NCBI RefSeq assembly: GCF_900107435.1
Contig: NZ_FNPZ01000004.1
Coordinates: 248,001-312,000 of the forward strand
From: Herbiconiux ginsengi
GTDB taxonomy: Bacteria > Actinomycetota > Actinomycetes > Actinomycetales > Microbacteriaceae
Direction: 5' to 3'
DNA: 64,000 nucleotides
Below the pieces are notes generated by a model that saw only the letters and a program-made list of their open reading frames with translations, had not been told where the DNA came from and did not search any database. This document shows positions 31,286-59,952 of the stretch, piece by piece (position 1 is the stretch's first letter; the number at the start of each line of letters is the position of its first letter). Made by a program: the position numbers and the translations under genes.

Positions 31286-31314
31286 TTGGATCCACAGCTG
31301 GTATGTTTGGATCC
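31286..31314 (+). promoter_or_regulatory. GGATCC-pair operator, site A
   Basis: TTGGATCC twice with 21 bases between equivalent positions: GGATCC at 31288-31293 and 31309-31314, 15 bases between. It lies 20 bases before the start of the first gene of the cluster (31334). TATGTT at 31302-31307 may be the -10, so a bound repressor would cover the promoter. One of six equal sites, all in promoters of this cluster. Confidence 0.75.
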
Positions 31315-31333
31315 TACTTGAACCGGAAGGCAC

Positions 31334-32590
31334 ATGAACTCGATACCTGCCGTGAACTCGCCGGCATCCGATGCCGGCACATCACCACGACCGATCGACG
31401 TGCAGCGCGAGCGAGAGCTCACTGCCGGCTCCCGGCGTTCGCACCACTTCAATGCGGCGGGTGCCGCCCTTCCCTCGGTCGGCGTGGTCTCCACCGTCGT
31501 CGATCATCTGCGCCTCGAGGAATCGGTCGGCGGCTACGAGGCTTCGGCGGAGGTGCGCGCGCGGTCGGAGGCCGTGTACGACTCGGCGGCGCGGCTCATC
31601 GGCGCCGGCCGAGACGAGATCGCCCTCTTCGACAGCGCCTCGACGGGGCTCCGTGTCATCCTCGACGCGCTGCGGCCCCGGGTCGGCAGTCGCATCATCG
31701 CCTCTCGCAACACCTACGTGAGCCATGCCCTGCACCTCATGACACTCGAACGCGAAGAGCAGGTGGTGCTCGACATCGCGCCGGTGGGCCCGGGCCGGCA
31801 GATCGACCTCGACGCCCTCGAGAGACTGCTGGCGGAAGGACCACCCGCCATCGTGACCGTGGCGCACGTGCCGACCTCATCGGGCCTCGTCGAACCGGTC
31901 GCGCTGATCGGGGAGCTCGTGCGCTCGTACGGCGGCTTCTACATCGTCGACGCGACCCAGTCGGTGGGGCACCTGCGCACCGACGTGCGCGAGATCGGCT
32001 GCGACGCCCTCGTCACGACCGGGCGCAAGTTCCTCCGAGCGCCGAGAGGAACCGGATTCGGCTACCTCTCCGCCGCGGCCGTCGAGCGTCTCACGCCGAC
32101 GGCGCCCGACGTGCGTGCCGCGCAGTGGACGGCGCCGGCGGACTGGAAGGTCGACACCACCGCGCGCCGATTCGAGACCTGGGAAGCCGGCATCGCGGCC
32201 CGGCTGGGTCTCGGCGCCGCGATCGACGAGGCGCTCGATCGCGGCCTGCCCGCGACCGAGGCATGGCTGACGGCCGCCGGGCGCGCGGTGCGGGCCGCGC
32301 TCGCCGAGGTCGAGGGCGTGCGGGTGGCGGAGCCGCTCGAGACCCCGTCGGCGATCGTGACCTTCGAGGTGGACGGCGTCTCGGCGGCCGAGGTCGTCGC
32401 GGAGCTCGCGAGCCAGAAGGTGCGGCTCGTCTCGGTGCCGGCCACACACGGGCAGTGGGATCTCGGTGACCGGGGCATCCCCGCCGTCGTTCGCGCCTCC
32501 ATCCACGTCTACAACGACGAGAATGACATCGCTGCACTGATCGATCGTGTCTCGGACATCGCTCGGGCGCAGCGGAAGGGACAGGCGTGA
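31334..32590 (+). CDS. Class V aminotransferase-fold PLP enzyme
   Basis: A 418-residue fold-type I PLP enzyme of the cysteine desulfurase / selenocysteine lyase branch. Asp206 (YIVDATQSVG) should hold the pyridine nitrogen and Lys232 (TTGRKFLRAPRGTGF) should form the Schiff base. The RAPRGTGF stretch is typical of stand-alone class V enzymes acting on small amines or thiols rather than of IscS, and no conserved Cys loop of a desulfurase is visible. It is the first gene of operon A and ends in a GTGA overlap with an amine-oxidising flavoenzyme, so a role in amine or amino-acid breakdown is likely. GGAAGG precedes the ATG. Confidence 0.8.
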   Translation: MNSIPAVNSPASDAGTSPRPIDVQRERELTAGSRRSHHFNAAGAALPSVGVVSTVVDHLRLEESVGGYEASAEVRARSEAVYDSAARLIGAGRDEIALFDSASTGLRVILDALRPRVGSRIIASRNTYVSHALHLMTLEREEQVVLDIAPVGPGRQIDLDALERLLAEGPPAIVTVAHVPTSSGLVEPVALIGELVRSYGGFYIVDATQSVGHLRTDVREIGCDALVTTGRKFLRAPRGTGFGYLSAAAVERLTPTAPDVRAAQWTAPADWKVDTTARRFETWEAGIAARLGLGAAIDEALDRGLPATEAWLTAAGRAVRAALAEVEGVRVAEPLETPSAIVTFEVDGVSAAEVVAELASQKVRLVSVPATHGQWDLGDRGIPAVVRASIHVYNDENDIAALIDRVSDIARAQRKGQA

Positions 32591-33699
32591 ACGCGGTGAC
32601 GACGGCCGGCGGCATGGACGCGGATGTCGTGGTGCTGGGCCTCGGCGTGCACGGCAGTGCGGCGGCGGCCAGTCTCGCCCGCCGCGGCCACCGCGTGATC
32701 GGCCTCGAACGGTTCACCCCCGATCACTCTCGCGGCTCGTCGCACGGGCGCACCCGGATGATCCGTCGCGCCTACCCGAACGCGGTGTGGAACGGCTTCG
32801 TCGAGAAGGCCTACGACGCCTGGGAGGCCCTCGAACGCGAGTCGGCGACCACGCTGATCCACCGCACGGGCGGTGTCTACGCCCACGCCGGCGCGTCCCC
32901 GCTGCAGGGCCCCGGTTGCGAGACCCTCGAGAACGCCGAGGCCGTGGCCGAGCGGATGCCGGCGCTGCGGATCCCCGCCGGCCACGGTGCCGTGTTCGAC
33001 CCGAGCGCCGGGGTTCTCGAAGCCGAGGCCGCGCTCGCGGCGCTGCGCACGAGTGCCGGTGCCCACGGTGCACAGCTGCGTTTCGGCGAGCAGGTGGAGA
33101 GCTGGTCGCCGACGGACGACGGCGTGATCGTGCAGACCCCGGACGGCCCGATCCGCGCGCGGCGGCTCGTGGTGGCCGCCGGACCCTGGGCCGGGGATCT
33201 GCTGCCCTCGCTCGCTCCGCTGCTCGAGGTCTGGCGGATCGTCACCGTGACGGTCGCTCCCGGGCAGTTCGCCGGCAGGCCGCCGCAGCTCGGGGCCTTC
33301 TCGGTCGACCGCCCCGAGGGTCTCGTCTTCGGCATCCCGGATGCACAGGGCAACGGGCTGAAACTCGGCATCGACGCCGGGCCGGTCTGGAACCCCGAGG
33401 TGCCGGTGGCCCCGCCCACCGATGCCGAGGTCGACGAGATCCGGTCCCTCATGGAGGAATACGTGCCAGGCATCGACACCTCCATCGTGGATGCGGCCGC
33501 GTGCCTCTACACGATGACCGCGGACAAGCGCTTCGTGATCGGCCCGCTCGCCGAGAGTCCGGCCGTGATCGCGGTCTCGGCCTGCTCCGGCCATGGCTTC
33601 AAATTCGGTGCGGCCGTCGGCGACGCCGTGGCCGATCTGGTGGAGGGCATCCCGCGCCCCGACCTCGACTTCATCTCGACCGCGCGACGGGGGCTGTGA
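32587..33699 (+). CDS. FAD-dependent N-methyl amino acid / amine oxidase (SolA, monomeric sarcosine oxidase-like)
   Basis: 370 residues. The N-terminal dinucleotide motif is VVVLGLGVHGSAAAASLARR, and DHSRGSSHGRTRMIR follows as in monomeric sarcosine oxidases. Cys306 in CLYTMTADKRF matches the Cys that binds FAD covalently, and SGHGFKFG follows near the C-terminus. Family members oxidise N-methyl amino acids or secondary amines to imines with H2O2 release; PuuB-like relatives oxidise gamma-glutamyl amines. The start is GTG, overlapping the preceding stop. The next gene is a gamma-glutamyltransferase, which favours a gamma-glutamyl substrate, but this is inference. Confidence 0.85.
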   Translation: MNAVTTAGGMDADVVVLGLGVHGSAAAASLARRGHRVIGLERFTPDHSRGSSHGRTRMIRRAYPNAVWNGFVEKAYDAWEALERESATTLIHRTGGVYAHAGASPLQGPGCETLENAEAVAERMPALRIPAGHGAVFDPSAGVLEAEAALAALRTSAGAHGAQLRFGEQVESWSPTDDGVIVQTPDGPIRARRLVVAAGPWAGDLLPSLAPLLEVWRIVTVTVAPGQFAGRPPQLGAFSVDRPEGLVFGIPDAQGNGLKLGIDAGPVWNPEVPVAPPTDAEVDEIRSLMEEYVPGIDTSIVDAAACLYTMTADKRFVIGPLAESPAVIAVSACSGHGFKFGAAVGDAVADLVEGIPRPDLDFISTARRGL

Positions 33700-33701
33700 C
33701 C

Positions 33702-35240
33702 ATGTCGATCGCTCTCGCCGCACCGCACGCGGCCGCTGTCTCCGCCGGTGAGCGTGCCGCAGCCGCCGGCGGCAACGCCCTCGATGCCGCCCTCGCCGCC
33801 GCGGTCATGCTCACCGTGGTCTATCCGCACCAGTGCGCCCTCGGCGGCGACCTCATCGCCCTCGTGCGGAACCCCGCGGGGCAGACCACCGCCATCATCG
33901 CCGCGGGAACCGCTCCGGCCGCCATCGAGACCGTTTCGGCGTCCTGGGCGGCGGTGCCGAAGCAAGGCGTGCACTCCGTGACGGTTCCCGGCGTCGTCGC
34001 GGGCTGGCAGGCGGTCGCGCAGCAGGGGGCGGCCCTCGGGCTGGAACCCGCCTTCCGGCAGGCGGCGGCGACCGCGCGCGCCGGCAGCCCGGTGAGCGCC
34101 GGGTTGGCCCGGGCGATCGAGTCGCGGGCCGAGGCGATCACGGCCGACGCCGGTCTCTCCGCGATCTTCGCCCCGAACGCCCGGTTCTTGACGGAGGGCG
34201 AGCTCTGCGTGCAGACGGCGCTCGCCGACACGATGGAGCGGCTCGCCGCCGACCCGGGCGACTTCTACCGTGGCGACATCGCGCGGCAGCTGGTCGCCAC
34301 GCTGGCGGCGGCGGGCGGGACTCATGCCCTGTCCGACTTCGCGGCGTACTCGCCCGAGTCGACACCGGCCCTCGTCGCCGAGGTGGGCGGCCGCACCTGG
34401 TCGATCGCTCCGCCCCCCTCCGCCGGAGCCCTCATCCCGGGTGTCGTGGCGAGCGGCCTCGACGAGCACGGCAACGCCGACTCCGCGGCCCTCGTCGCCG
34501 CGAGCGTGCGCGGTGTCGCCGCACGCGGCGCCCACCTCGGCGATCCGCGGGTCGGGCCGATCGACGTCGAGCGGCTGCTCGACCTGTCGTCGGAGGCCTC
34601 GGCCGCGCCGCGCCTCGAGGCCCGCGCCAGCGGCGACACGGCCGCGGTCGTCGCGACCGACGACGAGGGCTGGGCGGTCACGATCGTGCAGAGTGTCTAC
34701 CAGACCTTCGGCGCCGGATTGCTCGACCCCGTCACCGGCGTGCTGTTCCACAACCGGGGGAGCGCGTTCACGATGGATGCCGCCTCACCCGCCCGGCTCC
34801 GCCCGGGAGCCCGCCCGCCCCACACGCTGTGTCCGCTGATCGTCGAAGACGCCGAGGCGGTGATCGTCGCGGGGTGCCAGGGCGGCCGAGCTCAGCCCTG
34901 GATCCTCGCCCAGCTCTTCGCCGACCCGTCGGCCCTCGGCGCGCCGCTGGGGGAGATCCTCGCCACCCCACGCTGGATCGTCGGCGACGTCGACCTCGGC
35001 CACGAGCGCCTCACCCTGGTCGCCGAACCGGGTTTGCCCGCGCTCGTGCACGAGGCCGCCGCCTCCCTCGGCGTGCCGTCGGTCGAGCTGCCCGGCCCGG
35101 CCGACGTCGCCGGCCACGTGCAGCTCGTGCGGCGGGCGCGGGCCACCGCCATCCTCGATGCGGGCAGCGACCCGCGTGCCGACGGCGTCGGCACTGTCTT
35201 TCCGTCAGAGCACGAAGGAGCCACCCATGACCTCACGTAA
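33702..35240 (+). CDS. Gamma-glutamyltransferase family protein, apparently intracellular
   Basis: A 512-residue Ntn-hydrolase of the GGT family. The N-terminal block APHAAAVSAGERAAAAGGNALDAALAA is the start of the mature GGT core. The small-subunit start with the catalytic Thr should be SGDTAAVVATDDEG, about residue 311, and PPPSAGAL precedes it. Family GGTs are usually exported, but here the core begins within ten residues of the ATG and there is no signal peptide, so the protein should stay in the cytoplasm. That fits removal of a gamma-glutamyl group from an intracellular intermediate. It lies two bases after the flavoenzyme stop; the copper amine oxidase overlaps its end. Confidence 0.83.
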   Translation: MSIALAAPHAAAVSAGERAAAAGGNALDAALAAAVMLTVVYPHQCALGGDLIALVRNPAGQTTAIIAAGTAPAAIETVSASWAAVPKQGVHSVTVPGVVAGWQAVAQQGAALGLEPAFRQAAATARAGSPVSAGLARAIESRAEAITADAGLSAIFAPNARFLTEGELCVQTALADTMERLAADPGDFYRGDIARQLVATLAAAGGTHALSDFAAYSPESTPALVAEVGGRTWSIAPPPSAGALIPGVVASGLDEHGNADSAALVAASVRGVAARGAHLGDPRVGPIDVERLLDLSSEASAAPRLEARASGDTAAVVATDDEGWAVTIVQSVYQTFGAGLLDPVTGVLFHNRGSAFTMDAASPARLRPGARPPHTLCPLIVEDAEAVIVAGCQGGRAQPWILAQLFADPSALGAPLGEILATPRWIVGDVDLGHERLTLVAEPGLPALVHEAAASLGVPSVELPGPADVAGHVQLVRRARATAILDAGSDPRADGVGTVFPSEHEGATHDLT

Positions 35241-37140
35241 CTGGACCGATCCGGTCACCCCCGCCGAGATCGACGAGATCTCCGCCCTCGTGCGCGCCGA
35301 CGAGCGGATCGGCGAACGCCCGCGGTTCTGGGGCATCGCCGTCGAGGAGAGCCTCGGCCGAGCACTCGCTCCCGGCCAGGGCCGCCCGGTGCGGCTCGTC
35401 GTGATGAATCCGGATGCCCACGCGGCATGGGAGGTCACGGGCTGGACCTCGGGCATTGACCGGGACGCATCTCTCTCCGGCTGGACTCCGGTCGACGCCA
35501 AGCGCCCCGGTGTGTCGTCGGACGAGGCCCGGATGGTGGCCGTCGCCGCCCGCAACAGCCCGATCCTGAAGGAGGCCCTCGCCAAGCGGGGCATCCACGA
35601 CACCTCGCTCGTCTGGGTCGACCCCGAGTCGATCACGGGATTCGAGCCCGAAGACCTGGCCGACCGCCGCCTCTCCTGGGGCACGGTCTGGCACCGCCTC
35701 ACGGCCGACGACAACGGCTACGCGCGCCCCGTCGCCGGCCTCGTGCCGATCATCGACCTCGAGACGCTCGAGATCGTGCGACTCGAAGACCACGGCGTGA
35801 TCCCGCTGGCCGCCGAGACGGGCAACTACCGCTCGGGCACCTGGGGTCCTGACCGCACGGTCGCCCCGCTCGAGATCGTGCAGCCCGAAGGCCCCGGCTT
35901 CGAGGTCGACGGCCACCTGGTCTCCTGGCAGGGCTGGCAGTTCCGCATTGGATTCACACACCGCGAGGGTCTCGTGCTGCACGACATCGGCTACCAGGAC
36001 GGCGACACCGTGCGCCCGGTGCTGCGCCGGGCCGCGATCAACGAGATGTACGTGCCCTACCTCGACGCCGACCCCACCGCGTATCGCAAGAACTTCTTCG
36101 ACTGGGGCGAGTACGGCGCCGGGCCTCTGACGGCCTCACTAGAGCTCGGCTGCGACTGCCTCGGCGAGATCCGCTACTTCGATGCCCACTTCATCGACGG
36201 CTACGGCGCCGCGAAGACGATCGTCAACGGGATCTGCCTGCACGAGGAAGACGACTCCATCCTCTGGAAGCACGTGAACACGCGCACCGGCGAATCGGAG
36301 GTGCGGCGTCAGCGCCGCCTCGTCATCTCCTCCTTCGCCACCGTGGCCAACTACGACTACGGCTTCTACTGGACCCTCTACCAAGACGGTGCGATCGAAC
36401 TCGAGGTGAAGCTGACGGGCATCCTGTCGGTGTCGGGCATCGACGACGGCGACGAGCCCGCTTTCGGCCGGATGGTGGCCCCGAACGTGCAGGCGCCCAC
36501 GCACCAGCACTACTTCGCGGTGCGCATGGACACGGCCGTCGACGGGCCGAGGAACCGCCTCGTGCAAGTGCACGCCGAGATCGAGGACGACGAGACGCTC
36601 AACCCCTACGGCAACGCCGTGAAGATGGTCTCGACCACGATCGCCTCCGAGCGGGAGGCTGCGCTCGTGAACGACCCCTCCCGTGCGGTGCACTGGCGCA
36701 TCGAGAGCACCGAGCGGACCAACCGCTACGGCGACTCCACCTCCTACCGGCTGGTGCTGCCGAACACGACCCGGTTGTTCGCGCGGCCCGGCAGTGTCGT
36801 CGAACGCAAGGCCCCGTTCGTCGCGAAACACCTGTGGGCGACCGCCTACGACCCGGCCGAGCGCTTCATCGCCGGCGAGTACCCGAACCAGGCCCCGCTC
36901 GGGGAAGAGGGCATCACGGCCTGGCAGCAGGCCGACCGGCCGCTCGACGGAGCCGAGCTCGTGGTGTGGCCGATCGTCGGAGTGCACCACTACGTGCGCC
37001 CCGAGGACTGGCCGATCATGCCGATCCAGCACATCGGGCTTCGACTCGAGCCCGACGGCTTCTTCGACCGCAACCCGGCGCTCGACGTGCCGCCGTCCCG
37101 TGCGGCCCACGTGGTCGACGGCGGCCACGCCTGCCACTGA
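35227..37140 (+). CDS. Copper-containing primary amine oxidase
   Basis: A 637-residue quinoprotein that oxidises primary amines to aldehydes with release of ammonia and H2O2. Tyr376 in TVANYDYGFYW is the precursor of topaquinone (NYD/E), Asp292 in NFFDWGEYG matches the catalytic base, and the copper ligands appear as HQH in APTHQHYFAVRMD and the His of PIQHIGLRLEPDGFF. No signal peptide is visible. The ATG at 35227 follows GAAGGAG and overlaps the GGT gene by 14 bases. It provides aldehydes for the dehydrogenase encoded at 42413. Confidence 0.95.
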   Translation: MTSRNWTDPVTPAEIDEISALVRADERIGERPRFWGIAVEESLGRALAPGQGRPVRLVVMNPDAHAAWEVTGWTSGIDRDASLSGWTPVDAKRPGVSSDEARMVAVAARNSPILKEALAKRGIHDTSLVWVDPESITGFEPEDLADRRLSWGTVWHRLTADDNGYARPVAGLVPIIDLETLEIVRLEDHGVIPLAAETGNYRSGTWGPDRTVAPLEIVQPEGPGFEVDGHLVSWQGWQFRIGFTHREGLVLHDIGYQDGDTVRPVLRRAAINEMYVPYLDADPTAYRKNFFDWGEYGAGPLTASLELGCDCLGEIRYFDAHFIDGYGAAKTIVNGICLHEEDDSILWKHVNTRTGESEVRRQRRLVISSFATVANYDYGFYWTLYQDGAIELEVKLTGILSVSGIDDGDEPAFGRMVAPNVQAPTHQHYFAVRMDTAVDGPRNRLVQVHAEIEDDETLNPYGNAVKMVSTTIASEREAALVNDPSRAVHWRIESTERTNRYGDSTSYRLVLPNTTRLFARPGSVVERKAPFVAKHLWATAYDPAERFIAGEYPNQAPLGEEGITAWQQADRPLDGAELVVWPIVGVHHYVRPEDWPIMPIQHIGLRLEPDGFFDRNPALDVPPSRAAHVVDGGHACH

Positions 37141-37143
37141 TCG

Positions 37144-37644
37144 ATGGCGGAGGTCCTGCACCTCGGTGCCCTCGGCGCGGCCGGTCTCGGTGCGTGCTGC
37201 GTGGCACTGGACGGCGCGCGCCCGCGGGTGCGCGAAGTGCTGCTCGCGCTCACCATGGTGGCGGCGATGCTCGACGTCGTCAGCGGACTGCGGCTCGTGC
37301 CCGTGCTCGTGTGGAGCGCGCTCACCGTCGCGCTCGCGCTCGCCCTGGCCGTGCGCCGACGCCGCTCGAGCGAGGCCCCGGGGGTCGGGCGGATGCGCCT
37401 GCACTCCTCGCTCGGAGCGATCGTGATGGCGGGGCTGATGCTCGTGATGGGCGGGGGCCGAGCGGCCGCGCACGGGCATCACGGCTCGACCGCGCCGCTC
37501 CTCCTCGGAACCCTGGTGATCGCCGCCGTGGTGCTGGCCGCCGCCGCCCTCCCGGAACTGCGGCGCGGGCACATCCTCGAACGGGTGCAGTACGCGGCGA
37601 TGTCGGCGTCGCTGCTGATGCTCGGGGGCGCCGCGCTCGGGTGA
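37144..37644 (+). CDS. Small DUF5134-like membrane protein
   Basis: A 166-residue protein with five hydrophobic segments (about 5-20, 32-50, 54-72, 88-105 and 118-160). A His-rich AAHGHHGS occurs between helices (about 110-117), which could bind a metal, possibly copper for the amine oxidase encoded three bases upstream. The resemblance is to actinobacterial DUF5134 proteins, whose function is unknown. It is the last gene of operon A and converges on the GntR gene with 16 bases between the stops. Confidence 0.65.
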   Translation: MAEVLHLGALGAAGLGACCVALDGARPRVREVLLALTMVAAMLDVVSGLRLVPVLVWSALTVALALALAVRRRRSSEAPGVGRMRLHSSLGAIVMAGLMLVMGGGRAAAHGHHGSTAPLLLGTLVIAAVVLAAAALPELRRGHILERVQYAAMSASLLMLGGAALG

Positions 37645-37660: not shown

Positions 37661-38377
37661 TCAGGCGGTGAAGACCGTCGAGCTGCGCCGCTCGTACCAG
37701 TGCGCGAGCTGCTCGCCGGCGCCGATCACGTGGGCGCGCATCTGAGCGCTCGCCGCCTCAGCGTCGCCCCGCTCGATCGCGTCGATGATGCGCAGGTGCT
37801 CCTGGTAGTTCTCCTCGCGGTGCCGATCGTCGTTCACGAGGAGCTGCGCCGACACGTTGCGCGGGAAGGTCTCGTTGATCTCCTCGATCGCCCGGGCGAG
37901 TCGTGCGTTCGCGGAGACCGTGGTGATGGTGTCGTGGAACACGTCGTTCTCGGGCCGGCTGTTCGTGGCCCGCTCCGCGCCGGGTCGGCCGGCGGCGATC
38001 GAACGGTCGTACATGTCCTGGTTGGCGACCCTGAGGCGCTGGATGTCGCTCTGCGAGATACGGCTCACCGCACGGGCGGCGGCCAGGGCTTCGAGTTCGG
38101 CGCGCACTTCGTAGGCCTCGCGCACCTCCCAGGGGGCAGGCACCCGCACCACGGCCCCGCGGTTCGGCACGACGTCGATGAGGCCGCCGGTCTGCAGCTG
38201 CCGGAGCGCCTCGCGCACGGGGGTGCGGCTCACGCCGAAGTCGTTCGCGAGCTCGGCCTGCCGCAACTGAGCGCCGATCGGGATGTCGCCGCTCATGATC
38301 CGGGCTCGGATCCTCGCGGCGATCTCGTCGACGAGCGCGTGCCCCGACGACAGTTCGCCGATCGTCTCCTCCGACAT
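37661..38377 (-). CDS. GntR family transcriptional regulator, FCD subgroup
   Basis: 238 residues. The N-terminal winged helix (about 12-80) contains GAQLRQAELANDFGVSRTPVREALRQL, and the all-helical FCD effector domain (about 90-225) contains VRAELEALAAARAVS, ENDVFHDTI and AHVIGAGEQL. FCD regulators bind carboxylate-type metabolites with a metal. The frame is open far upstream, but the ATG at 38377 is preceded by GGAGGAG. It is the only regulator in the 33 kb cluster and shares its promoter region with the VanB-like gene, where site B lies. It should therefore be the protein that recognises the six GGATCC-pair operators and regulate itself. Confidence 0.92.
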   Translation of the reverse strand: MSEETIGELSSGHALVDEIAARIRARIMSGDIPIGAQLRQAELANDFGVSRTPVREALRQLQTGGLIDVVPNRGAVVRVPAPWEVREAYEVRAELEALAAARAVSRISQSDIQRLRVANQDMYDRSIAAGRPGAERATNSRPENDVFHDTITTVSANARLARAIEEINETFPRNVSAQLLVNDDRHREENYQEHLRIIDAIERGDAEAASAQMRAHVIGAGEQLAHWYERRSSTVFTA

Positions 38378-38482: not shown

Positions 38483-38511
38483 TTGGATCCATGTCTGCCA
38501 TGTTAGGATCC
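38483..38511 (+). promoter_or_regulatory. GGATCC-pair operator, site B, with leaderless promoter
   Basis: TTGGATCC at 38483-38490 and TAGGATCC at 38504-38511. TAGGAT (38504-38509) sits six bases before the ATG at 38516, the position of a -10 of a leaderless mRNA, so the second hexamer overlaps the core promoter. The site lies in the shared region with the GntR gene. Confidence 0.78.
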
Positions 38512-38515: not shown

Positions 38516-39460
38516 ATGGTTGATTCCGCGGTGATGACCGAGCTGCGCGTGCGGGTTCGCACGCTCGCCCGCGAAGCCGACGACGTCCTGTCGGTCGAGT
38601 TCGAGGCGCTCGCCGGTGCGCTGCCGCGCTGGACCCCGGGCTCCCACATCGACCTCGTCGTGCCCGGAGCGCCCGTGCGCCAATACTCCCTCTGCGGCGA
38701 CCCGGCCTCCCCGCGTTACCGCATCGCCGTGCGGCGCGAGACCGAGAGCCGAGGCGGCTCCCGCGCCATCCACGAGCGCCTGCGACCGGGCGACGAAGTC
38801 GTGCTTCGCGAACCCCGCAACCACTTCGTGCTCGAGCCGGCGGCCGAATACCTCTTCATCGCCGGCGGCATCGGCATCACTCCTCTTCTGCCCATGCTGC
38901 GCGAGGCGAGCGAGCGCGGCGCGGCCTGGCGGCTGCTCTATCTCGGCAGCTCCCGCTCCCGCATGCCCTTCCTCGACGAGATCGCCGGACGAGGCGGCGA
39001 CTGCCGCGTGATCGCCGCCGATGAGGGCACCCGCGCCGACCTCGTCGCGGAGGTCGCCGCCTCACCCGACGCCCTCGTCTACGCGTGCGGCCCCGAACGG
39101 ATGCTCTCCGCCCTGGCCGAGGCGGTGACCGATGACTCGGAGCGGCTGCGGATGGAGTATTTCTCCGCCCCCGAGGTGCACTACGAGCCGGGCGGGCCGT
39201 TCCGCATCCGCCTCGACCGCAGCGGCCTCGAACTCGACGTGTCGCCCGACGAGACCATTCTCGAGGTCATGCGCGGCGCCGGCGTCGACGTGCTCACCGA
39301 CTGCGAGGAGGGCATCTGCGGAAGCTGCGAGACCCGCATCGTCGACGGCGAGGCCGAGCACCGGGATTTCGTGCTCACCGCGCAGGAGAAGTCCGAGAAC
39401 CACTGCCTCATGGTGTGCGTCTCCCGCGCATCCTGCCCCGTGCTCGTGCTCGACGCCTAG
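38516..39460 (+). CDS. PDR/VanB-type oxygenase reductase
   Basis: A 314-residue electron-transfer protein with a flavin domain first (about 8-105, RQYSLCGDP), an NAD domain next (FIAGGIGITPLLPML, YACGPERML) and a C-terminal plant-type 2Fe-2S ferredoxin domain with Cys ligands in DCEEGICGSCETRI and a later Cys near HCLMVC. This order is that of phthalate dioxygenase reductase and VanB. It passes electrons from NADH to a Rieske oxygenase, encoded next. The first ATG (38516) probably starts a leaderless mRNA; an in-frame ATG six codons later is an alternative. Confidence 0.93.
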   Translation: MVDSAVMTELRVRVRTLAREADDVLSVEFEALAGALPRWTPGSHIDLVVPGAPVRQYSLCGDPASPRYRIAVRRETESRGGSRAIHERLRPGDEVVLREPRNHFVLEPAAEYLFIAGGIGITPLLPMLREASERGAAWRLLYLGSSRSRMPFLDEIAGRGGDCRVIAADEGTRADLVAEVAASPDALVYACGPERMLSALAEAVTDDSERLRMEYFSAPEVHYEPGGPFRIRLDRSGLELDVSPDETILEVMRGAGVDVLTDCEEGICGSCETRIVDGEAEHRDFVLTAQEKSENHCLMVCVSRASCPVLVLDA

Positions 39461-39503
39461 ACCACACCGCCTCCCCGCCGAAACCACTGAAGGAGCCACT
39501 CGC

Positions 39504-42369: not shown

Positions 42370-42412
42370 TCCCGCCCGCACGAGCATCCGCACAACGAAG
42401 AGAGAACACCAG

Positions 42413-51050: not shown

Positions 51051-51079
51051 GTGGATGCATAATGGTAGGAATTGGATCC
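51051..51079 (+). promoter_or_regulatory. GGATCC-pair operator, site E
   Basis: GTGGATGC at 51051-51058 and TTGGATCC at 51072-51079. CATAAT at 51057-51062 is a good -10 inside the element, so the downstream hexamer covers the transcription start of the transporter operon. The start codon is at 51135. The upstream ATCCAA/TTGG repeat near 51035-51052 may be a further half-site. Confidence 0.75.
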
Positions 51080-52727: not shown

Positions 52728-52783
52728 CCCGAGAGCGCACGGAAACACGCGCTCGCTGAACCGGACGATTAAGGAGACCCGAG

Positions 52784-53851
52784 GTGCACACCATCGTTGA
52801 TCGAGACGACGACTCGTCGTCCGGTTCAGCCACGACTGCGAGCCGGCCCGCCCAGGCCGGCTCGCAGGCCGTCGCGGCCAGCAGCCTGGCCGGGGCCTGG
52901 CGCAGGTTCGCCGTGCGCCGTCTCATCGGTCTCGTGACCAACATCATCCTGTTGATCTTCGTGACCTTCTTCATCGTCCAGCTCATCCCCGGCGATCCGG
53001 CGTCCGCCATCGCGGGGGAGGATGCCAGTCAGGCCCAGGTCGATCAGATCAGGGTCGAGCTCGGCCTCGACCAGCCGCTTCTCCTTCAGCTCGGCAGCTA
53101 CGTCGCCCACGTGGTGCAGGGCGATTTCGGAACCTCCTTCCACTACAAGGTGCCCGCGCTGCAGATCGTGGGAGCGGCGGCGCCGTACACCATCTCCATC
53201 GCCTTCACCTCGCTCGTGATCTTCCTGGTGATCGGCCTCGCCCTCGGCATGGCCGTGGGCATCATCACGCGCGGTGACCGCCATCGCTGGCTCGACCACA
53301 GCTTCAACATCGGTGCGGGGGTCGTCTCCTCCATCCCGGCGTACGTGCAGGCCACGATCCTCGTCACCGTGTTCGCGGTCTGGCTGGCTCTGCTGCCTCC
53401 GGCGTACTCACCCGCATACAGCGTGGTGCAGTCGGCGATCCTCCCCGTCGCCGCCCTCAGCATCGGTTGCATCGCCAGCATCGCCCGTATCGTGCGACGG
53501 GAGACCTCGGTCATCCTCGAGCAGGACTACATGCGCACGGCTCGCGGCTGGCGGCTGGGTTCGGGAACGCTGTATGCGAAGCACATGCTCCCGAATCTGC
53601 TCACGACCGCGCTGACGCTCTCGGGCATCATCCTCACCGCCCTCCTCGGGTCGACACTGATCGTCGAGGCGGTCTTCGCGTGGCCCGGCATCGGCAGCGT
53701 GGTGGTTCAGGCGATCTCGGAGTACAAGGACTACCCCGTCATCCGGGCGTCGGTCTTCATGATCGGGACGATCTCACTCGTCTTCAACCTTCTGATCGAC
53801 GTCGTGCTCGGCCTCGTCGATCCCCGCACCCTGGGAGACGACCGTGGCTAG
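52784..53851 (+). CDS. ABC transporter permease, DppB type
   Basis: 355 residues with six membrane segments. The first helix is LIGLVTNIILLIFVTFFIVQLIPGDPA, a feature of DppB/OppB, and the EAA coupling loop reads ARIVRRETSVILEQDYMRTARGWRLG. The cytoplasmic N-terminus (about 45 residues, acidic and Ser-rich) is longer than usual. GTG start with AAGGAG seven bases upstream; 56 bases after the binding protein and eight bases overlapping the next gene. Confidence 0.93.
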   Translation: MHTIVDRDDDSSSGSATTASRPAQAGSQAVAASSLAGAWRRFAVRRLIGLVTNIILLIFVTFFIVQLIPGDPASAIAGEDASQAQVDQIRVELGLDQPLLLQLGSYVAHVVQGDFGTSFHYKVPALQIVGAAAPYTISIAFTSLVIFLVIGLALGMAVGIITRGDRHRWLDHSFNIGAGVVSSIPAYVQATILVTVFAVWLALLPPAYSPAYSVVQSAILPVAALSIGCIASIARIVRRETSVILEQDYMRTARGWRLGSGTLYAKHMLPNLLTTALTLSGIILTALLGSTLIVEAVFAWPGIGSVVVQAISEYKDYPVIRASVFMIGTISLVFNLLIDVVLGLVDPRTLGDDRG

Positions 53852-55573
53852 TCCGGTGACCCCACCCCTCGATCCCGCCCGCCGGTGGCGTTTCCGTGGT
53901 TCGCCGATGCTCTACGTCGGCTACGTCATGTTCGCCGTCGTGCTGCTCGTGGCGGTCATCGCGCCGATCTACTACGGCGACAGCGCGACCGCGATGACGA
54001 GCACCCGCAATTCGGGCCCGACCGGCGCGTTCCCGATGGGCACCGACGGCCTCGGTCGCGACATGCTCGCACGCACTCTCGTCGCCACCAGGGTCACCGT
54101 GCTGGCGGCGATCTCCGCGACCCTCCTCGCCGCTCTCGCCGGCATCAGCATCGGCGTCGGCGTCTGGCTCGCTCCGCGGAGGGTGCGCGAGGCATCGCTG
54201 CGCGTCATCGAGTTCTGGGTCTCCTATCCGGCGATGCTCGTGGCCATCGTGGTCGCGGCGATCCTCGGGCGCGGCATCCTGCCCGCCGTGCTCGCCATCG
54301 CGGTGGCGAACACCGCCGGTTTCGCCCGCCTCACCGCCAACCTCGCCGCGGGGATCGCCTCGCGCGACTACGTCGTCACCGCCCGCCTGATGGGCGTTCC
54401 GGTGGGGCGCGTGGCGGCGCGCCACGTCGTCCCGAACATGGCGGAGCCGCTGCTCATCCTGATCGCGCAGGCGTTCGCGGGAACCCTCGTCGAACTGGCC
54501 GGGTTGTCGTTCATCGGGCTCGGCGCGCAGAGCCCCGCGTTCGACTGGGGGTCGCTGCTCAACGAGGGCGTGAAGAAGATCTACACCAACCCGATCCTGG
54601 TGGTGGCCCCCGCCACCGCCTTGATCTTCGCCTCGATGGCTGCGCTGTTCATCGGCGACGGGCTCGCGGCCGCGGCGAACCCCCGTTCGAACACGAGCCG
54701 GGCCCGGATGCTCCGGGCGCCGGTGCCGGCGCCCGCCTCGGCGGCGACCCCGGTGCACTCGGACGCGCTCCTCGTGGTCGACGACCTCTCGGTGCGTCAC
54801 AACGACTCGGGCAAGGAGCTCGTCTCGCACGTCTCGTTCACGATCGATCGCGGCGAGGTGCTCGGGATCGTCGGCGAATCGGGTTCGGGGAAGTCGGTGA
54901 CCGCATCCGTCGTCGCGAAACTGCTCGCGGAGGGGCTGACCGCCTCGGCGGGCCGGCTCTCGCTCGCCGGGGCGGACCTCTTCGACAACCTGTCGAGGAA
55001 GGATCTCGCCCGCCGGGTGGCGCTCGTGTACCAAGATCCGGGCACGGCCCTGAATCCGGCCCTCACTCTGGGGTCGCAGCTCTCGGACGTGCTGGTGAAA
55101 GTGCTCGGACAGAAGCGCACAGAAGCCCGGCGCAACCTCGTCGAGCGGTTCTCGGAGGTGCTGCTCACCGATCCGGAGGGGCGCCTGCGGCAGTATCCGC
55201 ACCAGCTCTCCGGCGGCATGAAGCAACGCGCGATGATCGCCTCGGCGATGAGCACCAACGCCCAGCTCCTCGTGGCCGACGAGCCGACCACCGCCCTCGA
55301 CGTGACCGTGCAACGCGAGGTGCTCTCGCTGATCAAACGTATGAACAAGGAGATGGGCACCTCGGTGCTCTTCATCTCGCACGACCTCGGTGTCGTGCGG
55401 GCACTCTGCGACCGGGTGCTGGTGATGAAAGAAGGAGAGATCGTGGAGCGCATCGACGACATGGCGCACCTCTCGCCCGAGTCGGTGAAGCATCCCTACA
55501 CGCGTCAGCTGCTGGCGGCGACACCTGTGGTGCACGTGCCGGGTGCTGTCACGGCGGGTTCGGAGGCTCTTCG

Positions 55574-55577
<4 letters not shown>
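53844..55577 (+). CDS. ABC transporter permease-ATPase fusion (DppC-DppD)
   Basis: 577 residues. Residues about 1-285 are a DppC-type permease (GTDGLGRDMLARTL, EAA loop ITARLMGVPVGRVAARHVV-like region near 190, six helices). A linker of about 30 Ala/Pro residues leads to an ATPase of the oligopeptide group (about 310-560) with Walker A GESGSGKS, signature QLSGGMKQR, Walker B LLVADEPTTALD and the C-terminal HPYTRQLLAATP. Such fusions occur in actinobacterial dipeptide importers. GTG start overlapping the previous gene. Confidence 0.93.
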
Positions 55578-56391
<814 letters not shown>

Positions 56392-56392
<1 letters not shown>

Positions 56393-57642
56393 TGGCGAGG
56401 CTCCCCGGAACGCCGGTGGCGACCGAGCCGTATCGGCTCGTCGGCGCCACCCTGCTCGACGGAACGCTCGGCGACCCGGTGCCGGATGCCGAGATCGAGG
56501 TCGATCACGGCCGCATCGTGTATGCGGGGCCTCGCCGGCGCCGCGATCTCGCCGGCGTGCGCGTCATCGACGTCGCCGGCGGCCACCTGATGCCCGGCTT
56601 CGTCGACGCGCACGTGCACCTCAGCATGAGCACCTGGGACCCGGTCGAGACCCAGCGTGCCTGGTTTCCCGAGGAGCACGTCGTCGCGGCGCTCGGCAAC
56701 CTGCGGTCGACCGTCGACGCCGGGGTGACCACCGCACGCGACCTCAGCGGGCTCACGCCGGGCTACCGCTCCCGCATCGCCGCGGGGGATGTCGTCGGCC
56801 CCCGCCTGCATCTGGCGATCGCCATGCTCTCGCCCACCGGCGGGCACGCCGACCCCGTGCTGGCCAACGGCTCCCTCCCGCTCTGGGCCGAGCGCGCGAC
56901 CACTCCCGGGTGGGCCGTGGTCGACACCGTCGACGAGGTCGTCAAGGCGGTCCGTGCCCTGGTGCGCACGGGTGCCGACGTCGTCAAGGTGTGCGCGTCG
57001 GGCGGAATGAGCTCCCCGCACGACGACCCGTCCGACCGAGGTCTCCCCGAAGAGCACGTCGCCGCCATCGTCGCGGAGATGGGGGGCCGGCAGGGTCAGC
57101 CCGTCGCGGCGCACGCGCAGAACGACGAGGGGGCGCGCGCAGCGGTGCTCGGTGGTGTGGCGAGCATCGAGCACGGCTACGAGCTCTCCGACCAGACCAT
57201 CGCCCTCATGCTCGACCGCGGCACGGTGCTGGTGCCCACGCTCAGCACGCTGCTGCGTCGCGGAGCGGGAGAGGACGACCCCGCGTCGGCTCGACGCACG
57301 AACGCGCGGGAGTCCATCCGTCGCGCGATCGCCGCCGGAGTGCCGGTCGCGCTGGGAACGGATGCCGGCATCCACGTCCACGGGCGCAATCTGACCGAGA
57401 TCGGGCACCTCGTGCGGGCGGGGCTCTCGCCGCTCGCGGCCGTGCACGCCGGAACCCTGGCGGGTGCGCGGCTGCTCCGCCTCGACGACCAGCTCGGCTC
57501 GCTGCAGGCCGGGAAACTGGCCGATTTCACGGTGACGGCGGTGGACCCGCTCGCACGACCCGACGCCCTGGCAGAGCCCGACGCCATCCGCCTGGTCGCG
57601 CAGGGCGGCCGGGTGATGAAAGACCTCGACGCCCTGGGCTGA
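56392..57642 (+). CDS. Imidazolonepropionase-like amidohydrolase
   Basis: 416 residues. HxH is present in GFVDAHVHLS, the Lys ligand in GADVVKVCASGG, further His in VAAHAQN and IEHGYEL, and the Asp in PVALGTDAGI. This is a complete metal site of the imidazolonepropionase / Xaa-Pro dipeptidase group, unlike the two cluster members at 48708 and 49819. It hydrolyses a cyclic amide or peptide-like bond. Being the last gene of the transporter operon, it probably takes the first step on the imported compound. Confidence 0.87.
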
Positions 57643-57643
57643 C

Positions 57644-57671: not shown

Positions 57672-57679
57672 CGGACGCG

Positions 57680-58369
57680 TCAGGCGATGGGGTCGATCGA
57701 CCCGAGCGCCTGCTCGATGATCTCGACGACCCGGGCCGGCGCGGCGTGCGGAACCGCGTGGCTCGTGTCGACCTCGGAGACGACGGCCCCGGCCCGTTCG
57801 GCCATGTCGCGCTGGGCCTCGATCCTGATGTGCTTGTCGTTCGTGGCCAGGAGGTACCAGGCGGGCAGCGTCTGCCACGCGGGGGCGCCGGTCTCGCCGG
57901 TGAAGATGGCGTTCGCCGACACGCGGTTGTCGTCGTCGCGGGCCTCCCAGATCTCGTCGGGCACGTCCCAGGCGAGCGCCTGACGCGCTTCGGGGCGGCC
58001 GTCGGGAATCCATTCGCCGTCGTCGCCGCGCGTCATGAACGACGACACCAGGGCCTCGGGGTAGCTGTTCACGATCTTCTGCACCGACTCGCCCTCCGCC
58101 GGGGCGAAGGCCGCCACGTAGACGAGTCCGTGCACGTTCTCGTTGCGGCCCGCATTGGTGATGACCGCGCCGCCGTAGGAGTGGCCGACGAGCAGCACCG
58201 GTTCGCCCGCGGCGTCGATGAGGGCGTTCACGCTCGCGACGTCGTCGGTGAGCGACTGCGACGGGTTGTCGGCCACGGAGTACGACAGGCCCCGTTCGTC
58301 GAGCAGCGGTGTCACGAGCGACCAGCTCGCCGAGCTCCCGCCGGCGCCGTGAACCAGGATGATGTGCAT
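57680..58369 (-). CDS. Alpha/beta hydrolase (EstA / methylesterase-like)
   Basis: A 229-residue protein starting with IILVHGAGGSSASW (oxyanion region). The nucleophile is in VGHSYGGAV (Ser about 80), the acid Asp in LLATNDKHI and the His in SHAVPHAAP. The small lid and the N-terminus resemble plant-type methylesterases and hydroxynitrile lyase relatives. In the Rut pyrimidine pathway a hydrolase of this fold acts next to a RidA protein; the same pairing occurs here. GAGGAG, overlapping the RidA stop codon, precedes the ATG at 58369. Confidence 0.87.
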   Translation of the reverse strand: MHIILVHGAGGSSASWSLVTPLLDERGLSYSVADNPSQSLTDDVASVNALIDAAGEPVLLVGHSYGGAVITNAGRNENVHGLVYVAAFAPAEGESVQKIVNSYPEALVSSFMTRGDDGEWIPDGRPEARQALAWDVPDEIWEARDDDNRVSANAIFTGETGAPAWQTLPAWYLLATNDKHIRIEAQRDMAERAGAVVSEVDTSHAVPHAAPARVVEIIEQALGSIDPIA

Positions 58370-58371
58370 CG

Positions 58372-58866
58372 TCACTCCTCGGGTGAGGCTTCGAGGCTCA
58401 ACCAGAGTTCGAAGCAGTTGTTGCGCGACAGGCTGGCCGCGCCGATGGTGGCTCGGCCGACGCTGCCGATCTCGTCTCCGAAGACATCGAGGAAGAGGTC
58501 GGTGGCGCCGTTGGAGACGTCGTAGAGAGGCTCGTAGCCCGGGGTGCACATCACGAAGCAGAGCGCTCGGGAGAGGCTCGCCACGTTGTCGAGCGAGCCC
58601 ACGGCGTAACGGATCATGCCGAGCGCGTGGATCGCGGTGAGCCGAGCGGCCTGGTTGGCCTGCTCGAGCGTGACGTCGGCACCGACGGTGCCGGGGAAGA
58701 GCCGGTCGCCCTGACGGTTCTCCGGCGTGATGCCGCTGAACTCGACGAGGTTCCCCGTTCGGTGGAACGCCTTGAGGCGTCGCCCGTACCGTCGCCCGTA
58801 CGGCGGATCGGCGTAGTCGGGGATGTCGAGGCCCAGCTGAGCGGCCCGCTGCTCCGCCGTGCTCAT
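58372..58866 (-). CDS. RidA/YjgF family protein
   Basis: A 164-residue member of the RidA family, which hydrolyses reactive enamines/imines or related aminoacrylates. Family blocks are LVEFSGITPEN, VTLEQANQAARLTAIHALGMIRYAVGSLDNVASL and GSVGRATIGAASLSRN. The substrate Arg of RidA proper (in the RVA/RPAR block) is not visible, so it belongs to a divergent Rid subgroup. It overlaps the cyclase gene by ATGA. Imines from the amine oxidases of the cluster would be natural substrates. Confidence 0.82.
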   Translation of the reverse strand: MSTAEQRAAQLGLDIPDYADPPYGRRYGRRLKAFHRTGNLVEFSGITPENRQGDRLFPGTVGADVTLEQANQAARLTAIHALGMIRYAVGSLDNVASLSRALCFVMCTPGYEPLYDVSNGATDLFLDVFGDEIGSVGRATIGAASLSRNNCFELWLSLEASPEE

Positions 58867-59549
58867 GCGGGCAGCGGCAGGAGCACCGAGGGCGCCGGTG
58901 CGGCCTCGCGGCCTTCGAAGGGGATGGGCAGGCAGACGAGGTAGTAGTCGCCGGCCTCGGCGTGCGCGAGGTTCGCGTTCTCCAGGATGACGACGCCGGC
59001 CGTGCAGAGGATGACGTGCGTCGGCCAGGTCTCGGTGTGGTCGGGCGCCTCCATCGTCATGTAGTCGTTGGCCGCGAACACCACACCGTTGTCGACGAGC
59101 CACTGCGCCCCGCTCGGCCCGAGGCCCACCCAGGTGGGGCTCTTCTCGGTGCGGGTGAGGGCATCCGTCGAGTTGCGCGTCTTGAAGAGCACGCGGCGCG
59201 CCCCCGCTGCGCCGGCGGCGATCAGGTCGTCGGCCGTGATCTCCTTCTCGACGTGGCGCAGGTCGAGCACGCGGGCCGGGCCCACGGTGTGGTCCAGCGG
59301 CAGACGGTCGACGGTCGTGCCGCCCTTCACGAAATGGCTCGGCGCATCGACGTGTGTGCCGGTGTGCGCGCCGATGAGCCAGCGCGACACCTCGCTCGGG
59401 CTCGTCTCGTCGATCACCTCCACCATCTCGTAGGTGGGCCGGCGGCCCCAGTGCAGCATCTGGGGATGCACGGGGATGCTGAGATCGATCGGTTCGGTCA
59501 CGGGGGAGATGCTTTCTGTGAGGAGAGGGAGCCGGGAGATGCTGCTCAT
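58863..59549 (-). CDS. Cyclase family hydrolase (kynurenine formamidase-like)
   Basis: A 228-residue metal hydrolase with the family motif HTGTHVDAPSHF (HxGTHxDxPxH), the binuclear metal site, and later GLGPSGAQWLVDNGV and NDYMTM. Relatives include kynurenine formamidase and isatin hydrolase, which hydrolyse formamides or small lactams. The ATG at 59549 overlaps the end of the upstream cupin gene by ATGA; further upstream codons are not conserved. With RidA and the alpha/beta hydrolase it forms a minus-strand operon behind site F. Confidence 0.88.
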   Translation of the reverse strand: MSSISRLPLLTESISPVTEPIDLSIPVHPQMLHWGRRPTYEMVEVIDETSPSEVSRWLIGAHTGTHVDAPSHFVKGGTTVDRLPLDHTVGPARVLDLRHVEKEITADDLIAAGAAGARRVLFKTRNSTDALTRTEKSPTWVGLGPSGAQWLVDNGVVFAANDYMTMEAPDHTETWPTHVILCTAGVVILENANLAHAEAGDYYLVCLPIPFEGREAAPAPSVLLPLPA

Positions 59550-59923
59550 CGGTAGACCACGTAGAACTTGCGCACCGGCTCCACCACCGTCCATACTCCC
59601 GCCCATCCGATCGGGAAGAAAGCGGCCGTGCCGCCCGTCAGTTCGACGGCCTCCTCGCCGTCGCGCTGCACCACCATCGTGCCGGAGAGGATGTGCACGA
59701 TCTCCCCCCGCGTCGTGAACTCCCAGCGCGAGGAGCCGATGTCGCTCTCCCAGACGCCGGAGATGATGGTGCGGTCGTCGTTGGCGAACTCGACGCGGCC
59801 ACGCACCAGCACCTCGCCGTCGAGCGGAGTCGCGCTCGGCGGAGCGAGCGGCTTCTCTTCGAGGGCGGACCGGTCGACTTCCTGCGGGCGGACTGTGTGG
59901 GTCATGACCCCATCGTAATCCAT
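59546..59923 (-). CDS. Small cupin protein (EutQ-like/DUF861)
   Basis: A 125-residue single-domain cupin: beta strands around SRWEFTTRGEIVHILSGTMVVQRDGEEAVELTGG and FPIGWAGVWTVVEPVRKFYVVYR, typical of the DUF861/EutQ group also seen as ureidoglycine-type proteins. Conserved metal His residues are reduced to one. The start is either ATG 59923, directly after the operator hexamer and suiting a leaderless mRNA, or ATG 59905 (119 residues). First gene of a four-gene operon. Function unknown. Confidence 0.78.
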   Translation of the reverse strand: MDYDGVMTHTVRPQEVDRSALEEKPLAPPSATPLDGEVLVRGRVEFANDDRTIISGVWESDIGSSRWEFTTRGEIVHILSGTMVVQRDGEEAVELTGGTAAFFPIGWAGVWTVVEPVRKFYVVYR

Positions 59924-59952
59924 GTGGATCCCGTATGTATTAGATTGGATCC
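59924..59952 (+). promoter_or_regulatory. GGATCC-pair operator, site F
   Basis: GTGGATCC at 59924-59931 and TTGGATCC at 59945-59952, 15 bases between the hexamers. It separates the cupin operon (minus) from the urea-carboxylase operon (plus, start 59976). TAATAC or TACATA on the minus strand could be the -10 for the cupin gene. Confidence 0.76.

What the first reader, a model, noticed from the sequence alone, without database searches (positions are those of the whole stretch)
31286..59952. One regulon code: six GGATCC pairs with invariant 15-bp spacing, one per transcription unit
In all six promoter regions between 31.3 and 60 kb there is a 29-bp element made of two TGGATCC-like hexamers with exactly 15 bp between the hexamers (21 bp period). 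They lie at 31286, 38483, 45258 (minus), 49752, 51051 and 59924. At least one hexamer of each pair is a perfect GGATCC and the spacing never varies; the inner 15 bases are not conserved. Five sites lie in divergent promoters or directly before an operon, so every transcription unit of the cluster has one. The only regulator in the cluster is the FCD-type GntR protein at 37661. Two half-sites on one face of the helix two turns apart suggest a dimer or a pair of dimers covering the core promoter. I noticed no such pair elsewhere in the window.
Basis: partly seen in the sequence, partly recalled or inferred. Interest (0 to 1): 0.85.

Follow-up and report, generated by a model that had tools for sequence, protein, structure and literature searches.

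The report
Paired operators of one catabolic regulon
A catabolic gene cluster in an actinobacterium appears to be wired together by six copies of one paired DNA switch that most likely binds the cluster's own GntR-type regulator, and the same switch recurs beside that regulator in many other actinobacteria.

Summary
GGATNC-N15-GGATCC has six places in the 4.85-Mb genome, all in this cluster; in the window no other spacing is enriched. Each hexamer is the core of a full palindrome, ATTGGATCCAAT, so an element is two dimer operators two helical turns apart, not two half-sites. Of 60 loci around relatives of the FCD-GntR gene (52-88% identity), 59 hold such a pair and 51 hold one within 330 bp upstream of gntR; other spacings give background. 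Eight genes internal to the window's operons never carry it, e.g. DAO 0 of 46, GS 0 of 39. A motif scan ignoring gntR found it in 10 of 16 family genomes with the orthologue and 3 of 382 without. In one relative the cluster is split 0.9 Mb apart and both parts keep the sites. Best reading: an autoregulated, probably repressing FCD-GntR binds as two adjacent dimers over the core promoter; some promoters add a third site in 21-bp phase. The GG-AT-CC core departs from the published GT..AC consensus. Binding, sign and effector are not shown.

The parts
31288..31314 (+). Paired operator A, GGATCC-N15-GGATCC, before the aminotransferase/oxidase operon
   Evidence: upstream of the AT5 homologue in 27 of 44 relatives
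38485..38511 (+). Paired operator B in the divergent gntR / ferredoxin reductase promoter; second GGATCC ends 4 bp before the ATG at 38516
   Evidence: upstream of gntR in 51 of 60 and of FdR in 16 of 20 relatives
45258..45284 (-). Paired operator C (GGATAC-N15-GGATCC on minus) in the divergent GMC / amidohydrolase promoter; abuts the ATG at 45257
   Evidence: little support from relatives (GMC 0 of 1, AH3 1 of 17)
49754..49780 (+). Paired operator D (GGATAC-N15-GGATCC) in the divergent PTE-like / amidohydrolase-2 promoter
   Evidence: PTE 3 of 4, AH2 6 of 31 relatives
51053..51079 (+). Paired operator E (GGATGC-N15-GGATCC) before the ABC transporter operon
   Evidence: SBP5 9 of 11 relatives
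59926..59952 (+). Paired operator F, exact pair, in the divergent cupin / UAAP1-UAAP2-urea carboxylase promoter
   Evidence: cupin 4 of 5 relatives, DUF1989a 0 of 2
37661..38377 (-). FCD-type GntR regulator (P0001, 238 aa), the likely binder; wHTH plus FCD with Asn144/His148/His194/His216
   Evidence: Pfam GntR and FCD; alignment of 61; fold like PmiR and Atu1419/VanR
31334..37644 (+). Operon: class V aminotransferase, FAD oxidase (DAO), gamma-glutamyltransferase, copper amine oxidase, small protein without Pfam family
   Evidence: Pfam, NCBIfam
38516..43870 (+). Operon: ferredoxin reductase, Rieske oxygenase, glutamine-synthetase-like ligase, aldehyde dehydrogenase
   Evidence: Pfam, NCBIfam
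43857..45257 (-). GMC-type oxidoreductase, start codon directly after operator C
   Evidence: Pfam
45342..48667 (+). Amidohydrolase-3, amidase, 162-aa protein without Pfam family
   Evidence: Pfam
48708..49715 (-). Phosphotriesterase-family protein (start codon uncertain)
   Evidence: Pfam
49819..51029 (+). Amidohydrolase-2 and cytidine-deaminase-like protein
   Evidence: Pfam
51135..57642 (+). Peptide-type ABC transporter (binding protein, permease, permease-ATPase, ATPase) and amidohydrolase-1
   Evidence: Pfam
57680..59905 (-). Cupin, cyclase/arylformamidase-like, YjgF-like, alpha/beta hydrolase operon
   Evidence: Pfam (the YjgF match is below its cut-off), NCBIfam
59976..61510 (+). Two DUF1989 proteins (UAAP1, UAAP2); urea carboxylase and allophanate hydrolase follow, running beyond the window
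   Evidence: Pfam, NCBIfam

Best explanation
The six elements are the operators of one autoregulated regulon governed by the FCD-type GntR protein encoded at 37661-38377. Each element is two complete palindromic operators (consensus ATTGGATCCAAT) with centres 21 bp apart, about two turns of B-DNA, so two GntR dimers would sit side by side on one face of the helix. Judged from the -10-like element between them, the downstream operator would lie at about -5 to +1 and the upstream one in the -35/-10 spacer (inferred), so the pair covers the core promoter and most likely represses it until an effector (probably the substrate or an intermediate of the amine/amide pathway) binds the FCD pocket. One element serves one or two divergent transcription units, so six elements cover about ten units, gntR included. 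Shown by computation: the motif, its confinement to the cluster in this genome, its conservation with gntR, its absence before genes that are internal to operons. Inferred: binding, cooperativity, repression, effector, start sites.
For: Confinement in the own genome. Among 60 gntR loci found by protein similarity: exact pairs at period 21 = 59, next best 9 (d=22), 0-4 at each other distance from 6 to 63; with one mismatch 164 against 2-31. 59 of 60 loci hold a pair with spacer G+C up to 0.6; 51 of 60 within 330 bp upstream of gntR. Pairs before gntR 51/60, AT5 27/44, FdR 16/20, SBP5 9/11, cupin 4/5, PTE 3/4; before genes internal in the window: DAO 0/46, GGT 0/22, GS 0/39, CDA 0/24, PermB 0/12, PermC 0/12, ATP2 0/22, amidase 0/21. 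Family scan not based on gntR: 10 of 16 genomes with the orthologue, 3 of 382 without, Fisher 9e-14. Split cluster in G156, one GntR match at E up to 1e-55, pairs at both places. Palindromic half-elements. -10-like TANNNT in 33 of 92 distinct spacers at offsets 7-9, shuffles mean 9.9, largest 21. Of 15 P0001-like proteins in the own genome, the other 14 have no such site.
Against: No binding data. The relatives were chosen by gntR similarity and are not independent (many Microbacterium). 9 of 60 loci lack a pair before gntR and one of these (L089) has none at the threshold. Some units in relatives seldom carry it (AH2 6/31, ALDH 6/39, AH3 1/17, DUF1989a 0/2, GMC 0/1). Five genes internal in the window do carry pairs in relatives (CuAO 14/47, Rieske 15/39, ALDH 6/39, YjgF 11/13, cyclase 2/3); in the loci I looked at they head a unit there (e.g. 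CuAO divergent from gntR in L096, YjgF from AT5 in L078), but not each case was checked. Three family genomes have the motif without an orthologue (G050, G268, G280). The bare GGATNC pattern occurs 0-9 times in other genomes of the genus. Repression rests only on position. -35 boxes are not recognisable.
Confidence: 0.85

Rival explanations
1. The pair is a bipartite promoter (-35 and -10) read by an alternative, ECF-like sigma factor rather than an operator.
For: Two short conserved blocks at fixed spacing before the units, with the period in the range of sigma promoters (recalled).
Against: Both blocks are palindromes and serve divergent genes; the downstream block ends 4 bp before the projected start in 13 of 16 FdR homologues with a pair and abuts the ATG at 45257, too close for a -10 box; a -10-like TANNNT tends to lie between the blocks; a third phased block occurs in a subset; no sigma factor among the cluster proteins scanned.
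Confidence: 0.04
2. GntR binds, but as an activator or dual regulator rather than as a repressor.
For: Binding alone does not give the sign; the HypR paper names both repressing and activating positions of FCD regulators (passages of PMC6608401).
Against: The pair lies on the -10 and start region and before gntR itself, the usual position for a repressor.
Confidence: 0.15
3. Another, trans-encoded regulator binds the elements and the link with gntR is only that of cluster neighbourhood.
For: gntR is part of the conserved cluster, so co-occurrence cannot separate it fully from other cluster genes.
Against: gntR is the only regulator among the cluster proteins scanned; loci with a pair at gntR but at most one other cluster gene at 38% identity or more exist (L106, L112); a pair lies before gntR in 51 of 60.
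Confidence: 0.08
4. Chance clustering of GGATCC hexamers.
For: With 2 mismatches the window count is at chance; the bare pattern occurs 0-9 times in other genomes of the genus.
Against: Strict form: six of six genome matches in 29 kb, 0-1 matches at any other spacing in the window, and 59 exact period-21 pairs in relatives against at most 9 at any other distance.
Confidence: 0.005

Closest known systems
Atu1419 (VanR group, FCD-GntR; PMC7797058, abstract and passages seen)
   Same: FCD-GntR with wHTH; metal residues Asn/His/His/His also present here (N144, H148, H194, H216); short palindrome over -10; among the best fold matches; catabolic cluster with autoregulation.
   Different: Operator ATGTATACAT has a GT..AC core, here TTGGATCCAA; its palindromes lie 109 or 190 bp apart with looping by a tetramer, here 21 bp apart; about 25% identity.
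E. coli NanR (PMC8012715, abstract and passages seen)
   Same: FCD-GntR; several dimers packed side by side on a repeated operator, spacing critical, cooperative repression.
   Different: GGTATA repeats without palindromic units; cooperativity through a 32-residue N-terminal extension, while in P0001 the GntR domain match begins at residue 16 and only residues 1-9 are modelled with low confidence before it.
FadR-subfamily consensus TKGT/ACMA (Suvorova 2015, PMC4494728, passages and section 10 seen)
   Same: A/T-flanked palindrome for a dimer.
   Different: The GT and AC boxes are replaced by GG and CC; the string GGATCC does not occur in that paper's main text (supplements not seen).
PmiR of Pseudomonas aeruginosa (7xp0/7xp1)
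   Same: Best sequence and Foldseek match among solved structures.
   Different: About 30% identity; operator and effector not compared here.

Membership tests
GntR family, FCD (FadR/VanR) subfamily | N-terminal GntR wHTH plus C-terminal FCD domain | tested here: met
   PF00392 66.6 bits and PF07729 70.3 bits, both above cut-off
GntR family, FCD (FadR/VanR) subfamily | Metal-binding Asn/Asp and three His in FCD | tested here: met
   N144 in 58 of 61, H148, H194, H216 in 61 of 61; residue roles taken from PMC7797058. Presence of residues only; metal binding not tested
GntR family, FCD (FadR/VanR) subfamily | Operator with TKGT/ACMA boxes | tested here: not met
   Palindrome is ATTGGATCCAAT. The paper itself lists exceptions such as NanR and BioR, so this is a usual, not a defining, trait
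NanR-like multi-dimer repressors | Long N-terminal extension for cooperativity | tested here: not met
   GntR domain match begins at residue 16; residues 1-9 low confidence
NanR-like multi-dimer repressors | Cooperative binding of several dimers | not testable with these tools
   Needs purified protein
VanR-type tetramer (Atu1419) | Stable tetramer in solution | not testable with these tools
   Only a monomer model was made

The most novel reading that the evidence does not exclude
A distinct clade of FCD-GntR regulators reads a phased array code: two to four ATTGGATCCAAT palindromes locked at a 21-bp period, occupied by a dimer-of-dimers or a growing row of dimers, with the number of sites tuning each promoter, and the whole regulator-plus-operators set travels between Actinomycetota as a self-contained regulon.
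Probability: 0.3. Interest if true: 0.65.

Novelty: new variant of a known kind. Interest (0 to 1): 0.5.

Why it matters
It gives a complete, local regulon (one regulator, six operators, about ten units, no further strict site in this genome) with an operator core outside the published consensus, conserved with the regulator over at least ten actinobacterial families (origins listed). That makes regulator, operator and pathway directly testable, lets unlinked pathway genes be found by the motif (as in G156), and offers a two-dimer operator with low genomic background. The substrate of this widespread amine/amide pathway with a urea-carboxylase branch is not known to me.

Tried and rejected
Loose pattern with two mismatches in the window: at chance level, not used. 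The tool's reversed-pattern control: weak, because CCTAGG is rare, so spacing controls and congeners were used instead. Sigma-factor reading: judged unlikely on geometry and palindromy (see rivals). Riboswitch or other RNA element: Rfam at gathering threshold finds only one tRNA in the window. Looking for the motif in print: TTGGATCCAA + GntR (0 papers); GGATCCAA + GntR + binding site (6 papers, none on such an operator by title and start of abstract); ATTGGATCC/TTGGATCCA + regulator/Actinobacteria (118 papers, 20 listed, judged by title and start of abstract; the one actinobacterial regulator paper with four hits, PMC6985074, holds them in cloning primers); FCD + tandem operators (18 papers); GntR + direct repeat + 21 bp (18 papers, 15 listed); cluster enzymes (1 paper, a review, not opened); Herbiconiux + GntR. 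The library lacks most subscription papers, so absence from print is not shown. Substrate of the pathway: family scans gave no specific answer. Specificity residues: R39 and Q40 are near-invariant (59 and 60 of 61), and the four own-genome paralogues whose HTH my regular expression caught have an acidic residue at the Q40 place (3 of the 7 paralogue loci were not caught, 7 further paralogues were not fetched); suggestive only. 12 of 170 pairs with spacer G+C above 0.6 were dropped before the matrix and phase counts. VIA-align search unavailable.
Full report
Observation. Exact GGATCC-N15-GGATCC occurs three times in the window against none in 100 dinucleotide shuffles. Allowing one mismatch over both hexamers, a period of 21 bp gives six pairs while each other period from 6 to 59 gives 0 to 3. 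GGATNC-Nn-GGATCC on both strands gives 9 matches (six places) at n=15 and 0 or 1 at each other n from 0 to 59. The loose form with two mismatches is at chance (10 against 6.9 expected). In the whole genome (4,853,715 bases, 12 contigs) GGATNC-N15-GGATCC has six places, all in the cluster. The tool's reversed control was 0 but is weak, CCTAGG being rare (1 against 21 GGATCC in the window). In the 15 other genomes of the genus the same pattern has 0 to 9 places each by my count, mostly with G+C-rich spacers; four of the nine in G009 lie together in its own copy of the cluster. TTGGATCC-N13-TTGGATCC with up to two mismatches finds only the six places in the own genome; of sixteen further rows at three mismatches, four lie in the cluster (three of them the same elements on the other strand, one a neighbour in phase) and twelve are scattered elsewhere, against three for the reversed control.

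What the element is. GGATCC is its own reverse complement. A matrix over 158 pairs from the window and 60 related loci shows that the palindrome extends outwards on both hexamers to about ATTGGATCCAAT (12 of 170 pairs with G+C-rich spacers were dropped first). Each hexamer is therefore a full operator for a dimeric regulator. The centres are 21 bp apart, about two turns at 10.5 bp per turn (recalled value), so two dimers would lie on one face. A third hexamer in the same phase with at most two mismatches follows or precedes in a subset: 46 of 158 at +42 and 29 of 158 at -21 (a triple can be counted from both of its pairs) against a background of 9.1 with standard deviation 3.8 and maximum 21, the maximum being partly at +63, again in phase. 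In the window, B, E and F have such weak third sites at -21 (GCGTCC, TAATCC, TGACCC, two mismatches each).

Position. Four elements lie in divergent promoters (gntR/FdR, GMC/AH3, PTE/AH2, cupin/UAAP1) and two before single operons. Element C directly abuts the ATG at 45257, element B ends 4 bp before the ATG at 38516, which points to leaderless or nearly leaderless messages with the downstream operator over the start region (inference). In relatives, oriented by the downstream gene, TANNNT at spacer offsets 7-9 occurs in 33 of 92 distinct spacers; unseeded shuffles gave a mean of 9.9 and a maximum of 21; the opposite strand gave 17. Because divergent genes share sites, the two orientations are not cleanly separable.

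The regulator. The only regulator among the cluster proteins scanned is the 238-aa FCD-GntR (Pfam GntR and FCD; others). A protein search returned 60 loci at 52-88% identity in Microbacterium, Curtobacterium, Agreia, Rathayibacter, Kineosporia, Jiangella, Streptomyces, Actinoplanes, Pseudonocardia, Acrocarpospora, Demequina and others. In these 1.2 Mb the number of exact GGATCC pairs is 59 at period 21, 9 at period 22 and 0 to 4 at each other distance from 6 to 63; with one mismatch 164 against 2 to 31, the 31 being at 42, twice the period. With spacer G+C up to 0.6, 59 of 60 loci hold a pair and 51 of 60 hold one within 330 bp upstream of gntR; the exceptions are L060, L076, L078, L082, L083, L089, L104, L113 and L114, of which only L089 has none at all.

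Operon heads against operon interiors. Homologues of the window genes (tblastn, at least 38% identity, start within 30 residues) were located and the 260 bp before each start examined. Pairs: gntR 51/60, AT5 27/44, FdR 16/20, Rieske 15/39, CuAO 14/47, YjgF 11/13, SBP5 9/11, ALDH 6/39, AH2 6/31, cupin 4/5, PTE 3/4, cyclase 2/3, AH3 1/17. None: DAO 0/46, GS 0/39, CDA 0/24, GGT 0/22, ATP2 0/22, amidase 0/21, PermB 0/12, PermC 0/12, ABhyd 0/11, AH1 0/9, mem 0/5, DUF1989a 0/2, DUF1989b 0/2, GMC 0/1. Other spacings averaged below 2 per gene (largest single count 13, for gntR). CuAO, Rieske, ALDH, YjgF and cyclase are internal in the window but carry pairs in relatives; where I looked they head a unit there (CuAO next to divergent gntR in L096, YjgF next to divergent AT5 in L078, ALDH next to divergent gntR in L069, positions), but this was not resolved case by case. 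DUF1989a and GMC, heads in the window, have no pair in the 2 and 1 relatives examined.

Reverse test. A motif scan of 398 family genomes, independent of gntR, matched 13. A protein scan of 398 family genomes at E up to 1e-55 matched 16. Ten genomes are in both, so 10 of 16 with the orthologue and 3 of 382 without carry the motif, Fisher 9e-14 (taking the two samples to be the same set, as the shared handles indicate; 362 genomes without a protein match are not listed by name). Of the six orthologue genomes without a strict match, three were fetched (G059, G203, G207), and all three hold period-21 pairs with at most one mismatch whose flanks miss the strict pattern; G086, G183 and G188 were not looked at. 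Of the three motif genomes without orthologue, G050 and G268 show one pair and no window-cluster gene in the stretch fetched; G280 was not looked at.

Natural experiment. In G156 the transporter/amidohydrolase part and the gntR/oxygenase part lie 0.9 Mb apart on one contig; both carry period-21 pairs before operons (L121, L122), and the genome has one GntR match at E up to 1e-55. This favours control in trans by that protein over mere neighbourhood.

Protein features. Over 61 sequences the HTH region is almost invariant (S50 R51 T52 P53, R55 E56, R59, Q62 in all), with R39 in 59 and Q40 in 60; the metal-site residues N144 (58), H148, H194, H216 (61 each) are kept. The AlphaFold2 model has mean pLDDT 87.6; the nearest solved structures are PmiR, a Brucella GntR and Atu1419/VanR.

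Comparison with known systems. The FadR subfamily consensus is TKGT/ACMA with GT and AC boxes, with stated exceptions (PMC4494728, passages and section 10). Here the boxes are GG and CC. NanR packs three dimers on GGTATA repeats with the help of a 32-residue N-terminal extension (PMC8012715, passages), which P0001 lacks. Atu1419 is a tetramer that loops distant palindromes (PMC7797058, passages). The closely spaced, phased pair of palindromes found here resembles both and equals neither. It would work like a multi-dimer FCD repressor; it is a member of the FCD-GntR family by domain content.

Pathway. The regulon joins a class V aminotransferase, FAD oxidase, gamma-glutamyltransferase, copper amine oxidase, Rieske oxygenase with reductase, a glutamine-synthetase-like ligase, aldehyde dehydrogenase, several amidohydrolases and an amidase, a peptide-type ABC transporter, and a UAAP1-UAAP2-urea carboxylase-allophanate hydrolase operon. 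An amine or amide whose breakdown releases urea or guanidine is a guess; the substrate, and so the effector, is not known.

Limits. Everything is comparative. Relatives share ancestry, so counts are not independent trials. Binding, cooperativity, sign and effector need experiments.

Noticed in passing
window 31286-64000 and L056-L059: P0001 groups with Microbacterium orthologues (up to 88% identity) while the orthologue of the same-genus genome G009 is only 66-68% identical; only 2 of the 11 same-genus genomes named have it. The cluster looks horizontally acquired from a Microbacterium-like source.
   Followed up: partly
whole window: G009 is in the same genus as the window's genome and has a contig of the same length (1,047,723) as the Herbiconiux MAG record of L077, so the window probably comes from Herbiconiux or a near genus.
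   Followed up: partly
59976-61510 and on to L129:5795: UAAP1 and UAAP2 (DUF1989) followed by urea carboxylase and allophanate hydrolase under operator F. DUF1989 pairs are known from guanidine breakdown (recalled), so this may be a guanidine rather than a urea branch.
   Followed up: partly
L079:9920, L081:9914, L084:3911, L085:9916, L088:9917, L091:9915: A second GGATCC pair with period 22 lies between the period-21 pair and gntR in Curtobacterium and Rathayibacter, possibly a second operator for gntR itself.
   Followed up: no
28385-31248: An ArsR-type HTH seemingly fused to a low-molecular-weight-phosphatase-like domain, next to an aquaporin-like protein and an FAD disulfide-reductase-like protein, by reading the translations; not checked with family models.
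   Followed up: no
37144-37644 and 48179-48667: Two small cluster proteins without any Pfam family; the first is found with its start in 5 of 60 related loci.
   Followed up: no
L120:9545 (G050): A perfect period-21 pair in a genome without a GntR match at E up to 1e-55 and with no window-cluster gene (34% identity or more) within about 9.5 kb; possibly the operator of a more distant GntR.
   Followed up: partly
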